Below, in pieces: positions 3,747 to 24,700 of a DNA stretch of 64,000 nucleotides; position 1 is the first letter of the stretch, and every line of letters begins with the position of its first letter. Below the pieces are notes generated by a model. That model saw only the letters and a program-made list of their open reading frames with translations. It was not told where the DNA came from and did not search any database. The translations under genes and the position numbers were made by a program. Location of the stretch: NCBI GenBank assembly GCA_963576565.1, contig OY755039.1:129508140-129572139 (forward strand). The letters run 5' to 3'. Source of the DNA: Aspidapion aeneum. Taxonomy: Eukaryota > Arthropoda > Insecta > Coleoptera > Brentidae.

Positions 3747-6700
3747 GTAACAGTTGTTTTTTCCCCACATATGTAGGTATAGGTATTATCTGGGGCACAA
3801 AAGCATGAAATTTGGCATAATTAGGTAATAAGAACTGTATTTTAATTGTCATGAGGCCTTTGTCACCGCAAAGTCTCAGGAATTAACAAACTGATTTTAA
3901 TTAAACTTTAAACTTTTAGAGATTGAACACTTTTTAAAGACATTGTCTAAAAGGGATTTAATTAAAACTGGTACTAAAAAAATGAATAGTATTTTTTTTT
4001 CAACAAAAACCAAGAGAGTTGCTAGACCTTTGGTTGGTGAGATATGGTTAAAAAACTGCAAAAATTTTATAATAAAAAGTGCAATATGCAAATTTTTATT
4101 TAAACTTATAACAACACCTAGTATTTACTGAGGGGTGCTAAGTAAAATAGGAAAACCTAGGTACTAAATTGTTGCTAAAGGTAGATCTGAAATAATTAAA
4201 ATAAAGAAGATATTATAAATATCACACAACTATTCTATACAGAATTATACCAAACAAAAAGGGAACCATCGCGAGAAACCATGAAGAAACTTCACACAAA
4301 AATAAAGAACATAAACTCAGAGCTACACCTGGAAAAGAAGGAGTAACGGCAGAAATGCTCAAATACGGTGGTAAAGCTGTAGTTAATATCCTTCATACTC
4401 TACTGAATAAAATACTAAAACAAAAAATAATCCCAAGCAACTGCAAATAATCCATAACCATTATTCTACATAAGAAAGGCGATAGACACAGTGTGCCTGA
4501 ATGAAGTATAGGTTACATAAAAATGGTTCCAAAAACTAATTGCACATTTTTGACTCTTTCCTGAGTTCAGAGCCATATTCATATAAATCCTAGCTGATCC
4601 TCTTCTCGAAATTTTATCAATTTTTTGCCATTTTTCTAGTTAGCCTAGGCGCTGGCTCCTGTCACGTGTGACCTAATATATACGGTCAGTTTGACTATAG
4701 GGCATTTTAGCTCACACTACTACTATACTATAGTAGTGTGAGCTATAGTGATCCTAATTTTTTCGAGAAAAAAAAAGTTGCTCCGATTTCAAAAATTTTT
4801 AAATATCTTTGCGTTTCAGATGATTTTGAAACTTTTTTGTTGCGCCGTCTGTCTGTCTGTCTGTCTGTCTGTCTGTCTGTCTGTCTGTCTGTCTGTCTGT
4901 CTGTCTGTCTGTCTGTCTGTCTGTCTGTCTGTCTGTCTGTCTGTCTGTCTGTCTGTCTGTCTGTCTGTCTGTCTGTCTGTCTGTCTGTCTGTCTGTCTGT
5001 CTGTCTGTCTGTCTGTCTGTCTGTCTGTCTGTCTGTCTGTCTGTCTGTCTGTCTGTCTGTCTGTCTGTCTGTCTGTCTGTCTGTCTGTCTGTCTGTCTGT
5101 CTGTCTGTCTGTCTGTCTGTCTGTCTGTCTGTCTGTCTGTCTGTCTGTCTGTCTGTCTGTCTGTCTGTCTGTCTGTCTGTCTGTCTGTATGTATGTATGT
5201 ATGTATGTATGTATGTCTGTCTGTCTGTAACGACCAACGCGCATAACTCAAAAACCGCTTGCCCGATTTTAATGAAATTTGGTACCTACGCTGGGTTTTG
5301 GGTCGAGATGGTCCCATTTAAAAATGAACAAAATCCACCAAACACAAGCCAAATAAAAGGGTGGGGGTATATTTCAAAAATTAGAGTTTATGTAAAAATA
5401 TGGCGTGTGTCATATCAAACGAAAGGTAATTGCGTCTGGAGTTAAATAAAATACATTTTACTTTAAAAAAACGGTGGGGGTAAATTTAAAAAATTAGTGT
5501 TTATGTGGAAATATGGCGTGTGTGATATCAAACGAAAAGTAATTGAGTCTGGAGTTAAACAAAATACATTTTAGTTTAAAAAAAAGGTGGGGGTAGATTT
5601 GAAAAATTAAAGTTTAAGTCAAAACATGGCTTGTGTGGTATCAAACGAAAGGTAATTGAGTCTGGATATCAATAAAATATATTTCAGTTTTTAGTTATAT
5701 TCACACTTACACTATAACTATACTACCTAGTGTGAGCTTAGGTGCCCATAGATTGGCAGAGTATTTAAGCACCCATAGGAGTATAAAAAAAGTTTGGTCA
5801 CGTGGTCAAACTCATGGTCGTTTGGCCGCTATCTTTGAAAATGGCCGCCAAATTGATAGATTTTTTTGTTTAAACATATCTCCCTACCCAGTCGTCCGAT
5901 TTTAATTTTTTAATGCCTGTTATACTCCTTTTTTAAAGACAAATAAATTTTGACATAACACATTTTTTTGATAAATCAAGTAGTTCTTGAGATATACCAA
6001 GTTATTAGTATTTCCGCTCGCAAAAGAATTAAAATAATACCCATGCTCATTTTATTGTAGCTTCAATATTATTGACATTTGTTTTTTTCTGTTACATAGA
6101 AGGCTTTAAACTTTTCACATAAGAGGATATTGACTTTATTTTAAAGTTCGATGGATGGTACGCCTAACGACTGCCTTAAAGAGGGTGGTTTCTAAAACCG
6201 TTCACAAGATTATAGAAAAAGTGAATTTGCAGCGAAACGATGCATCCTAGCGAAAAACGTTAAAAATAATTTTTTATAGTAGTTTTAATTCCGCTAGTAG
6301 AGTAGTAAGGGGGCTTCTGGCGCATTTTAACATGTAACTCTACATAAGAAAAAAAGCTGGTAAGTTTTTGGATGTATCACAGAATATTGCTTAACAGACA
6401 GTAATTTTTATGTGACACATCTTGTGCTACTTAATATAACCTTTTAAAGGTTCTGAATTGACAACTTACCTGTTTATTTTTTACTTGACAATTCGTATAA
6501 TTATTGAGCTGTACTGCTACTCACTATCCTACGCTTGCGGAATTTAAACCCAAACAGTCGGCTACTTGATAAGCGGTTATAATACTTTAACAAATGCCAA
6601 TTTAGTCATACCAGGCCCGCCATACAGATTTTGGTTTTTTTTGTACAAATTATTTTGTTTTTACCTTGTTTCATTTTAGTTTTTAGTACTATATACTTCT

Positions 6701-21700: not shown

Positions 21701-24700
21701 TATCAAAAGGGTATATTTTGTTATGACTACATGAATAGTTGGGAAAAACTAAGAGAGACATCTTTACCGAAAAAACTCCATTTCTTCAATTCTCTAGAAA
21801 ATAAAGAAATTTCGTTAGTTGATTATAAATATGCACAGAACGTGTGGAAAACCTTTGGTTGTAAAACCATACAAGATTATATGGAACTCTACATGAAAGT
21901 TGACATAATCCTCTTAATGCAGGTATTCCAGCAATTTAGGGAAAGTTGTCATAAAACGTATGGTTTGGACCCTGCGAACTATTTTACCCTTCCCGGTTAT
22001 GCATGGGATTGCATGCTGTACCGCACGCAACAAAAATTAGAACTCTTGACAGACTACAATATGGTCACATTTATAGAACGCGGTATTAGAGGAGGGTTAA
22101 GTCAATGTTCTAAAAGATATGTGGAGGCAAATAATAAATATATGCCAAACTACGACTTAACTAAAGAAACATCTTTTCTAATGTATTTTGATATAAACAA
22201 TCAGTATGGGTTTAGCATGACTCAGTTTCTGCCTTATGGAAATTTTTATTGGTTAGAAAGTAATGAAATGCTCAATTTTGATGTTAATAAAATTGAAGAT
22301 GACTCGAATAATGGATATATTCTAGAAGTCGACTTGTGCATTCCTGTGGAACCGAACCGAACACGACTATTTCTCTGACTTGCCTCTATGTCCTGAGCAT
22401 CAGTGCCCACCTGGCACTAAAGACACTAAAAATAAAAAACCCTATATTGACTTAAATACTCAATTAAGGCAGGATGCTAAAAATGAGTTTGAGAAAAACC
22501 TTTTTAAATTAATGAATAACGCCGTGTTTGGTAAAACAATGGAAAATATTAGAAATCACAGTAACATAAAATTAATTAAGAACTGGGACGGACGATTTGG
22601 AGCCGAAGCTCTAATCTCTCGACCAGAGTTTAAAAGTATAACCATATTTAATGAAAATTTGGTTGCCGTTGAACTTGAAAAAACAGAAGTATATTTCAAT
22701 AAACCGATATATGTGGGAATGTGTATTTTGGACATTGCCAAAACAACTATATATGATTTTCACTATAACTACATGGTACCGGCTTTTGGTAAGGATTGTA
22801 CTGTGGCATATACAGATACTGATAGTTTAGTTTATAACGTCCAAAATCATGACATTTACGAGTCCATACGGCGCGACTGCTGTCACACCTTTGATACATC
22901 TGACTATGCTGAAGATAACCAATATAACATTCCTAGAGTAAATAAAAAGGTTTTAGGGATGATGAAAGATGAAAACAATGGACAAATAATGACACATTTT
23001 ATTGGCCTCAGAGCTAAAATGTACGCTACAAAAGTAGCGGGTATAAAAAGTGAAGCTGCAAAAGTGACTAAGAAAGCTAAAGGCGTAAAGCAAAATGTTG
23101 TAAAATAAGAAATATCATTCGATGACTATGTCGACTGCCTAAATAACTATCAAGAAACAATGGTTACGCATAATCTTATAAGATCCGAAAAACATAGACT
23201 CTACTCTGTAAAACAGATAAAAATCGGACTAAGTCCCCTGGATGACAAACGGTCTATTTCAAAAGAGTCTTATGAAACGTTGCCGTGGGGGCACTATAGT
23301 ATTAAGTGAAAACTTAGTTTTAATGTAATCTTAATAATGTGGTATTTGTTTATATAGTGTTTGTTTAAATATTTTTAGCAAACTCTAAGTATGTAATTTA
23401 AGTTAGCATATGTATAGCGTAAGACCTAATATAATTTATTGTAAAAATAATTATATAAACTTTTTTAATAATACTTATAAGTAGTACCTATAATGTTATT
23501 ATAATATACCTACTATAATGTTAAATAGAATTTGTGAGTCTCCATCTATACCGTACTGAATTATGAATAACTGTATTCCTATGTAATACTTTTTTTTAAT
23601 AGACAAATAAAACATAATCTGGTGTAATTACTATTAACCTGTCCCAAGTACCCAGTACTAAAAATTAGAAAGTAAAATAAAATTCTAATCATTAACTGGC
23701 TAATATAGCAGAAGTATATAGTACTAAAAACTAAAATGAAACAAGGTAAAAACAAAATAATTTGTACAAAAAAAACCAGAATCTGTATGGCGGGCCTGGT
23801 ATGACTAAATTGGCATTTGTTAAAGTATTATAACCGCTTATCAAGTAGCCGACTGTTTGGGTTTAAATTCCGCAAGCGTAGGATAGTGAGTAGCAGTACA
23901 GCTCAATAATTATACGAATTGTCAAGTAAAAAATAAACAGGTAAGTTGTCAATTCAGAACCTTTAAAAGGTTATATTAAGTAGCACAAGATGTGTCACAT
24001 AAAAATTACTGTCTGTTAAGCAATATTCTGTGATACATCCAAAAACTTACCAGCTTTTTTTCTTATGTAGAGTTACATGTTAAAATGCGCCAGAAGCCCC
24101 CTTACTACTCTACTTCCGCTTCTCCTGATCATTGTCATATCGTTTATAATTTTTATGAAAGAAATCGATTTTGGAGCGAAAACATGAAATTTTTACAAAA
24201 TTGTATATTTTAGCTCGCTTGTCCAGCAAACTATCACAGCTAGGATGCTAAGTGGTACATCAAAAGGAGCGGAATCAAAAGTACAACAAAAAATAAATTT
24301 TATGGTTTTTCGCTAGAATGCATCGTTTCGCTGCAAATTCATTTATTCTATAATCTTGTGAACAGTTTTAGAAACCACCCTCTTTAAGGGAGTCTTTAGG
24401 GGTACTATCCATGGAACTTTAAAAACATAAAGTCAGTATCCTCTTCTGTGGAAGGTTTAAAGCCTTCTATGTAACAAGAAAAAAAGAAATGTCAATAAGA
24501 TTGTAGCTACAATAAAATAAGCATGGGTAGTATTTTAATTCTTTTGCGAGCGTAAATACTAATAAGCTTGGTATATCTCAAAAACTACTTGATTTATCAA
24601 AAAATATGTAATGACAAAATTTGTTTGTCTTTAAAAAAGGAGTGAAACAGGCCTTAAGAAATTAAAATCGGACCACTGGGTAGCTTAAACAAAAAATCTA

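What the first reader, a model, noticed from the sequence alone, without database searches (positions are those of the whole stretch)
6296..24114. A Polinton/Maverick-like element that is one near-perfect 17.8-kb palindrome
The element has the exact hallmarks of a Polinton insertion (AG-start ends, perfect TCCGCT 6-bp duplication), yet about 96% of it is inverted repeat with a polymerase gene in each arm and none of the other Polinton core genes visible. Because both palindrome ends sit precisely at the target duplication, the palindrome seems to have been inserted as such. This would be a head-to-head dimer of one half-element, as could arise by snap-back during protein-primed replication, able to integrate using an integrase supplied in trans. 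I know of no described Polinton with arms this long.
Basis: partly seen in the sequence, partly recalled or inferred. Interest (0 to 1): 0.93.

Follow-up and report, generated by a model that had tools for sequence, protein, structure and literature searches.

The report
Palindromic remnant of a Polinton virus-transposon
An insect chromosome carries a 17.8-kb piece of virus-like mobile DNA that reads almost the same from both ends, with one broken copy of the element's own DNA-copying gene in each half; it looks like a copying accident in free DNA that was then inserted whole, and so may preserve a trace of how these elements replicate.

Summary
6296-24114 (17,819 bp) is an inverted repeat: arms 6296-14940 and 15644-24114, 99.07% identical over 8,381 columns, loop 703 bp, bounded by the 6-bp duplication TCCGCT, ends AGTAGAGTAG. 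Each arm holds a nearly full-length, now broken Polinton/adintovirus-type polymerase gene (49% identical to Megastigmus wasp adintovirus PolB). No integrase or packaging ATPase was found; 4.1 kb of each arm is non-coding. It is a non-autonomous Polinton derivative, not a Polinton.

New evidence on timing: substitutions are even along the arms (7/808, 35/3,553, 36/4,020), equal over codon positions (12:12:10), N:S 28:6 against about 4.2:1 expected, and none of six frame-breaking indels is shared. So the reading frame was open when the arms became two, and both decayed neutrally afterwards. This favours an inverted dimer formed outside the chromosome and inserted whole with an integrase in trans; early post-insertion conversion is not excluded.

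The flanks are an older foldback element (arms 85-89%) inside a LINE that is collinear across the locus, which argues against a fold-back assembly error. The genome search did not complete, so one accident or a family is open.

The parts
6290..6295 (.). left copy of 6-bp target-site duplication TCCGCT (the ancestral copy: it lies in the older foldback arm, whose mirror arm has it too)
6296..14940 (+). left arm of the palindrome
6296..7103 (+). terminal non-coding part of left arm, begins AGTAGAGTAGTAAGGGGGC
7104..10799 (-). broken pPolB gene of left arm (open pieces 7101-7496, 7483-10398, 10371-10799); motif-C codons lost
10800..14940 (+). inner non-coding part of left arm; no ORF of 100 aa, no Pfam match in six frames
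14941..15643 (.). loop: two further copies of a ~285-bp tandem unit plus ~145 bp
15644..24114 (-). right arm of the palindrome
19657..23306 (+). broken pPolB gene of right arm (open pieces 19657-19989, 19941-20279, 20228-22378, 22326-23108, then matches beyond a stop to 23306)
24115..24120 (.). right copy of target-site duplication TCCGCT
4487..25005 (.). older foldback element hosting the insertion; TAGA at 4483-4486 and 25006-25009; its own loop is 24121-24267
39418..39927 (+). LINE paralogue collinear with 4202-4430 then 25082-25251: shows the two flanks are the two sides of one locus

Best explanation
A non-autonomous Polinton derivative, born as an inverted dimer. While a Polinton-type linear DNA, with a polymerase frame that was still open, was present outside the chromosome, a shortened copy of one end was turned into a head-to-head dimer: either its strand folded back near the ~285-bp repeats and was copied (snap-back, natural for protein-primed strand-displacement replication), or two broken copies were joined there. 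The dimer has an identical Polinton terminus at each end, so an integrase supplied in trans by a complete relative inserted it like an ordinary Polinton, duplicating TCCGCT inside an older foldback element. Since then both arms have decayed as neutral host DNA. Shown: palindrome, TSD, termini, polymerase in both arms, no shared frame-breaking indel, neutral and even divergence. Inferred: extrachromosomal origin, snap-back or joining, integrase in trans.
For: Symmetry at 99% runs exactly to both TSD-flanked ends and no further. Two identical termini, 6-bp TSD. The polymerase is of the family that lies beside rve integrase in relatives. Frame-breaking indels: 3 per arm, 0 of 6 shared (one search read against the frames). 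L keeps 180 of 187 and R 181 of 189 covered columns that are invariant in 16 homologues. Divergence even: 7/808, 35/3,553, 36/4,020; codon positions 12:12:10 (1 of 35 unassigned); N:S 28:6 codons against 4.2:1 expected for equal rates of all single changes. No step at the termini (1 substitution in the first 400 bp, 3.7 expected; 9 in 1,000, 9.3 expected; 12 in 1,447, 13.5 expected) and no unusually long identical run (600 bp, P 0.23). Outer foldback arms are over ten times more diverged (85-89% identity), so the palindrome is the younger insertion. In a different system, yeast converts a hairpin-capped linear duplex into an inverted dimer that then integrates (PMC4689423, passages, two of them from its abstract).
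Against: No second copy was examined because the genome search did not complete. The centre shows little or no shared sequence at the junction (by eye), which fits end-joining as well as snap-back. A conversion soon after insertion that ran through a whole TIR would leave the same pattern. Relatives L001 and L013 carry the integrase gene just 3' of PolB, where this arm ends after 0.8 kb without it, so the arm is not a plain half of such an element. The window pair sits on a branch of 0.7 in the tree, against end branches of 0.22-0.44 for its six nearest rows, and five invariant columns are changed in both arms: constraint may have been relaxed before the duplication, and an open frame is not proof of activity. 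Later gene conversion between arms could make the palindrome look younger than it is.
Confidence: 0.6

Rival explanations
1. Post-insertion conversion. An ordinary Polinton derivative with short TIRs inserted first; soon afterwards a break in one half was repaired by strand invasion between the two TIRs, copying the other half and turning the insertion into a palindrome.
For: TSD and end match are equally expected; TIRs offer homology in inverted order; several other inverted-repeat elements lie in this window, so long inverted repeats are not rare here.
Against: Requires a time when the polymerase frame was still open (no shared frame-breaking indel) and a conversion tract reaching the very terminus: no step in divergence within the first 400, 1,000 or 1,447 bp. 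Outer foldback arms were not homogenised (85-89%).
Confidence: 0.2
2. Palindromic family. The element is one copy of an established lineage of PolB-only palindromic satellites that replicate with their own polymerase and borrow integrase.
For: Polymerase frame open and well conserved when the arms became two copies (5 of 200 invariant columns changed in both arms); the centre, now non-coding in both arms, was probably already so then.
Against: No second copy seen; arms diverge neutrally, so selection on this copy ended at or near palindrome formation.
Confidence: 0.12
3. Assembly or library artefact: a fold-back chimera of one arm, or two haplotypes joined head to head.
For: The arms differ by only about 1%, a possible haplotype distance; no reads could be inspected.
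Against: A fold-back read would also mirror the flank at the same identity; the flanks mirror at 85-89% and only because of an older element, with a 147-bp segment on the right only. LINE sequence left of 4430 and right of 25082 is collinear with the paralogue at 39418-39927. TSD present on both sides.
Confidence: 0.06
4. Not a Polinton derivative but some other foldback transposon that captured a polymerase gene.
For: No integrase or ATPase gene found, no capsid gene recognised; 4.1 kb of unknown inner DNA.
Against: 6-bp TSD, AGT-type ends and a pPolB near the terminus all fit Polintons (PMC8097293).
Confidence: 0.02

Closest known systems
Polinton/Maverick transposons and adintoviruses of insects
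   Same: 6-bp TSD, AG/AGT ends, pPolB of the same family (49% to Megastigmus wasp adintovirus PolB); some relatives carry rve integrase or A32-type ATPase beside it.
   Different: No integrase or ATPase found; arms 8.5-8.6 kb against TIRs of 46-1,447 bp in intact vertebrate Mavericks (PMC8097293, section 7 read); polymerase doubled. It points outward, unlike most vertebrate Mavericks, though that paper reports outward modules in cane toad.
Symmetric recombinants of adenovirus type 12 (SYREC; recalled, no call found it)
   Same: Recalled as palindromic genomes with the viral end at both tips and much non-viral DNA inside; adenoviruses are protein-primed and are traced to polintons (PMC11071308, passages).
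   Different: Packaged virus DNA in cell culture, not an insertion with a TSD; in this window the inner DNA is of unknown origin.
Hairpin plasmid from yeast linear plasmids (Kikuchi 1985; title seen in a reference list; content recalled)
   Same: Linear element with a protein-primed polymerase giving hairpin and inverted-dimer derivatives.
   Different: Cytoplasmic plasmid, not integrated.
Inverted dimers in the ODIRA model (PMC4689423, passages)
   Same: Hairpin-capped duplex replicates to an inverted dimer, which then integrates.
   Different: Host origin and homologous recombination, not terminal-protein priming and integrase.
Foldback/MITE elements with long TIRs
   Same: Mostly inverted repeat with a small loop.
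   Different: Here TSD length, termini and polymerase are Polinton-type. The older element around it (4487-25005) is of the foldback kind.

Membership tests
Polinton/Maverick | 6-bp target-site duplication | tested here: met
   TCCGCT at 6290-6295 and 24115-24120
Polinton/Maverick | terminal inverted repeats with AG/AGT start | tested here: met
   AGTAGAGTAG at both ends; motif types of vertebrate Mavericks from PMC8097293: the match to AGT is close, not an exact (AGT)2 or (AG)3
[quoted passage not shown]
   as a pseudogene in both arms; pieces align within residues 5-1247 of the 1,251-aa P0002, same family as Megastigmus wasp adintovirus PolB; TP and vOTU parts by alignment only, no structure made
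Polinton/Maverick | rve integrase | tested here: not met
   tblastn of the L001 integrase against the window at E 1: no hit; Pfam in six frames of the left inner arm and left terminal part: none; loop scanned in 4 of 6 frames, none. Right arm not scanned apart
Polinton/Maverick | A32-like packaging ATPase | tested here: not met
   same calls: 40, 41, 55
Polinton/Maverick | major and minor capsid proteins, protease | tested here: inconclusive
   No Pfam match and no hit to the other 11 of 12 L001 proteins tried, but the capsid genes of L001 were not identified and capsids diverge fast; no ORF of 100 aa or more in the left inner arm or terminal part
Adintovirus (PolB with OTU, hexon, rve integrase with chromodomain; PMC11071296, passages) | rve integrase | tested here: not met
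Adintovirus | hexon | not tested
   no named hexon was used as a probe
Foldback element | long inverted repeats making up most of the element | tested here: met
   96% of 17,819 bp
Palindromic replication product of a protein-primed element | extrachromosomal linear form with terminal protein | not testable with these tools
   needs DNA from the animal

The most novel reading that the evidence does not exclude
A lineage of palindromic PolB-only Polinton satellites: elements kept as inverted dimers because two identical termini and a polymerase suffice for protein-primed replication, spreading with an integrase borrowed from complete relatives. One copy was examined, and nothing here excludes more.
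Probability: 0.15. Interest if true: 0.85.

Novelty: new variant of a known kind. Interest (0 to 1): 0.62.

Why it matters
Polintons are believed to copy themselves as protein-primed linear DNA outside the chromosome, but to my knowledge (recalled) this rests mostly on gene content. A dimer inserted with exact ends and a 6-bp TSD, whose polymerase frame was open when the arms became two copies and neutral after, would be a fossil of that stage and gives a test: if other insects carry palindromic copies about different centres, snap-back or end-to-end joining of linear Polinton DNA is a recurrent process and integration accepts such products. It also warns that short-read assemblies and filters on TIR length may break or discard such copies.

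Tried and rejected
Host-genome search for other copies: the genome search 'own' was asked 12 times and never answered. Viral contigs: the window polymerase alone found no relative; alignment A1 found one, L001. Contigs in bacterial and archaeal bins gave 14 more. Inverted repeats in these 15 loci: 1 of 15 has an opposite-strand self-match at E 1e-5, 108 bp in L004; in a finer search the longest in L001 is 48 bp. The other 14 are 3.1-7.2 kb pieces in which a long palindrome could hardly show. Terminal 16-mer in viral contigs: 12 hits, assumed chance, not followed up. Rfam on the window: 0 matches. Host species: insect by the named polymerase hits; the two best Penelope matches were 60% and 73% identical, so no species. 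Pfam alone does not name the polymerase; it rests on full-length homologues and a weak PHROG match. A relaxed comparison of the left arm and loop with the rest of the window gave one 41-bp match at 80%, not pursued. A reading of 31065-33399 as a short relative, because one end resembles AGTAGAGTA, was dropped: by eye no 6-bp duplication at its ends.

Print: searches (20 of 20 listed; 20 of 72; 15 of 25; 12 of 16), with Polinton or Maverick and palindrom, inverted repeat, long terminal inverted repeat, head-to-head, foldback, snap-back or inverted duplication, listed no title on a palindromic Polinton; most listed papers were not opened. Searches (15 of 86; 10 of 2,558; 6 of 6) listed no title on adenovirus symmetric recombinants. 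Seen of papers: PMC8097293 section 7 and passages; passages only of PMC6035795, PMC11071296, PMC12220804, PMC12368964, PMC4689423, PMC11071308, PMC12721341.
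Full report
WHAT IS THERE. The window holds one long inverted repeat whose outer ends are exactly 6296 and 24114. Aligned as a whole, the arms match at 8,318 of 8,416 ungapped columns with 14 gaps. With the alignment stopped at 14940, where the symmetry ends, 78 of 8,381 columns differ (99.07% identity, K2P 0.0094). Arms cover 17,116 of 17,819 bp. The loop is two more copies of a ~285-bp unit, of which each arm holds about one, plus ~145 bp. 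Both ends start AGTAGAGTAGTAAGGGGGC, found nowhere else in the window with up to 3 mismatches. TCCGCT flanks both ends.

WHAT SURROUNDS IT. The flanks are also an inverted repeat, but an older one: 5765-6295 against 24268-24792 at 89%, and 4486-4706 against 24794-25006 at 85%. It begins CACAGTGTGCC on both sides (4487 and 25005) with TAGA repeated outside. Its left arm carries a further ~1.06-kb stretch with a (GTCT)n run. LINE sequence at 4202-4430 and 25082-25251 is collinear with an uninterrupted copy at 39418-39927. The order is thus LINE, then foldback element, then palindrome. The left TCCGCT belongs to the outer arm (its mirror partner has it too), so the right one is the duplicated copy. 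The palindrome sits at the edge of the outer element's loop.

GENES. In each arm a polymerase gene runs from the inside outward and ends ~0.8 kb before the terminus. tblastn with five homologues recovers nearly the whole protein in pieces (within residues 5-1244 on the left and 5-1247 on the right of the 1,251-aa P0002). In the search with the 971-aa left-arm ORF, 1,756 proteins passed E 0.001 among the 7,986 candidates scored, and 120 were listed; those with an organism name are insects, apart from a wasp adintovirus and one labelled a Rickettsia endosymbiont of an insect. PolB of Megastigmus wasp adintovirus is 49% identical, Sitophilus oryzae proteins 54-59%. In a quick 60-row tree the two arms are sisters and join six of these rows with support 99; their common branch is long (0.7). 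Pfam sees an Endonuclease_7 match (also in L001 below cut-off); endonuclease insertions are known in polinton pPolBs (PMC11071308, passages). Selected neighbouring ORFs were scanned in 10 of 15 loci (not in L003, L007, L009, L012, L014): rve above cut-off in L001, L013 and L005, below cut-off in L004 and L010; A32 above cut-off in L001, below in L015; Bro-N and a weak VRR-NUC in L002; nothing in L006, L008 and L011. In the window, of 12 L001 proteins only PolB hits. Pfam finds nothing in six frames of the left inner arm and left terminal part, nor in the four loop frames scanned. The inner 4.1 kb has ORFs no longer than chance (93 aa; simulated mean 90; P 0.36).

WHEN THE ARMS BECAME TWO. Each arm has three frame-breaking indels in the polymerase. 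Read against the frames, every one of the six falls on a difference between the arms listed, so none is shared. The left arm has lost the motif-C codons; the right arm lacks a 44-codon stretch and has one premature stop. Of 200 columns invariant in 16 homologues, L keeps 180 of 187 covered and R 181 of 189; five changes are common to both. So the frame was open, and the protein well conserved, when the arms duplicated; whether it was active is not shown. Afterwards evolution was neutral: 7/808, 35/3,553 and 36/4,020 substitutions in the terminal, polymerase and inner parts; codon positions 12:12:10, one unassigned; N:S 28:6 codons against about 4.2:1 expected when all single changes are equally likely. 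Spacing of differences is compatible with random (longest identical run 600 bp, P 0.23; variance P 0.12) and there is no step near the termini.

HOW IT MOST LIKELY AROSE. Polinton polymerases carry a terminal-protein domain for protein-primed replication (PMC11071308, passages). In such a system a strand that folds back on itself, or two broken copies joined at their inner ends, would yield a DNA with the same origin and the same integrase site at both tips. Such a molecule could be copied and inserted with any active integrase of the family (inference). An open polymerase frame at duplication, neutrality of both arms afterwards, and full symmetry to the terminus fit an inverted dimer formed before insertion. 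I put this at 0.6. The junction at the loop has little or no shared sequence, so snap-back and end-joining are not separated. The main rival is conversion between short TIRs soon after insertion (0.2); it needs a tract to the very end at a time when the frame was still open.

ARTEFACT. A fold-back read would mirror flank and arm alike. Here the flank mirrors at 85-89%, the arm at 99%, and 147 bp is present on the right only. The LINE reads across the locus. I give artefact 0.06; reads were not available.

COMPARISON. Intact vertebrate Mavericks have TIRs of 46-1,447 bp (mean 402), lengths of 12.7-24.6 kb and, as a rule, gene modules pointing to the centre, though in cane toad they point away from each other (PMC8097293, section 7). 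The present element has a normal total length but arms about six times the longest such TIR. No table of insect TIR lengths was seen. Because integrase and ATPase were tested and not found, I file it as a Polinton-derived non-autonomous element and not as a Polinton or adintovirus. It works like the palindromic products recalled for adenovirus 12 (SYREC) and for yeast linear plasmids; those are recollections (for the yeast case only a reference title was seen).

LIMITS. No second copy, no reads and no host name. The interest score would rise if other palindromic copies exist and fall if this is the only one.

Noticed in passing
window 4487-25005: Older foldback element (arms ~0.74 kb, 85-89%, ends CACAGTGTGCC, TAGA repeated outside) inserted in a LINE copy; the Polinton-type palindrome lies at the edge of its loop, a palindrome inside a palindrome.
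   Followed up: partly
window 31065-33399: Another inverted-repeat element with 1.05-kb arms at 85% and a ~290-bp spacer; ends read TATTAGAGTAAA and TAGTAGAGTAAA.
   Followed up: partly
window 1343-2811 and 26355-27775: Two more inverted-repeat elements: the first with outer 90 bp at 98% and inner 0.4 kb at 83%, the second at 69%.
   Followed up: no
window 40731-51283: Penelope-like element with an 822-aa ORF at 41570-44038 and partial copies in direct (44018-45521) and inverted (49212-51283) order at 99.3-99.7%: apparently recent.
   Followed up: partly
window 59779-63073: Large tandem array with mixed periods (333 and 197 bp), GC 42-43% in its three full kilobases against about 35-36% in the kilobases beside it.
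   Followed up: no
window 4847-5228: (GTCT)n run of about 95 copies, 99% matches, near a 113-bp tandem repeat (5355-5690).
   Followed up: no
L002-L015: Polinton-type PolB genes sit in contigs binned as bacteria or archaea, for example Gastranaerophilales, Legionella and Thaumarchaeota: likely eukaryote or virus contamination of the bins.
   Followed up: no
L005 897-2117: A single ORF carries both a phospholipase-A2-like domain (PF08398) and an rve integrase core, upstream of a Polinton-type PolB.
   Followed up: no
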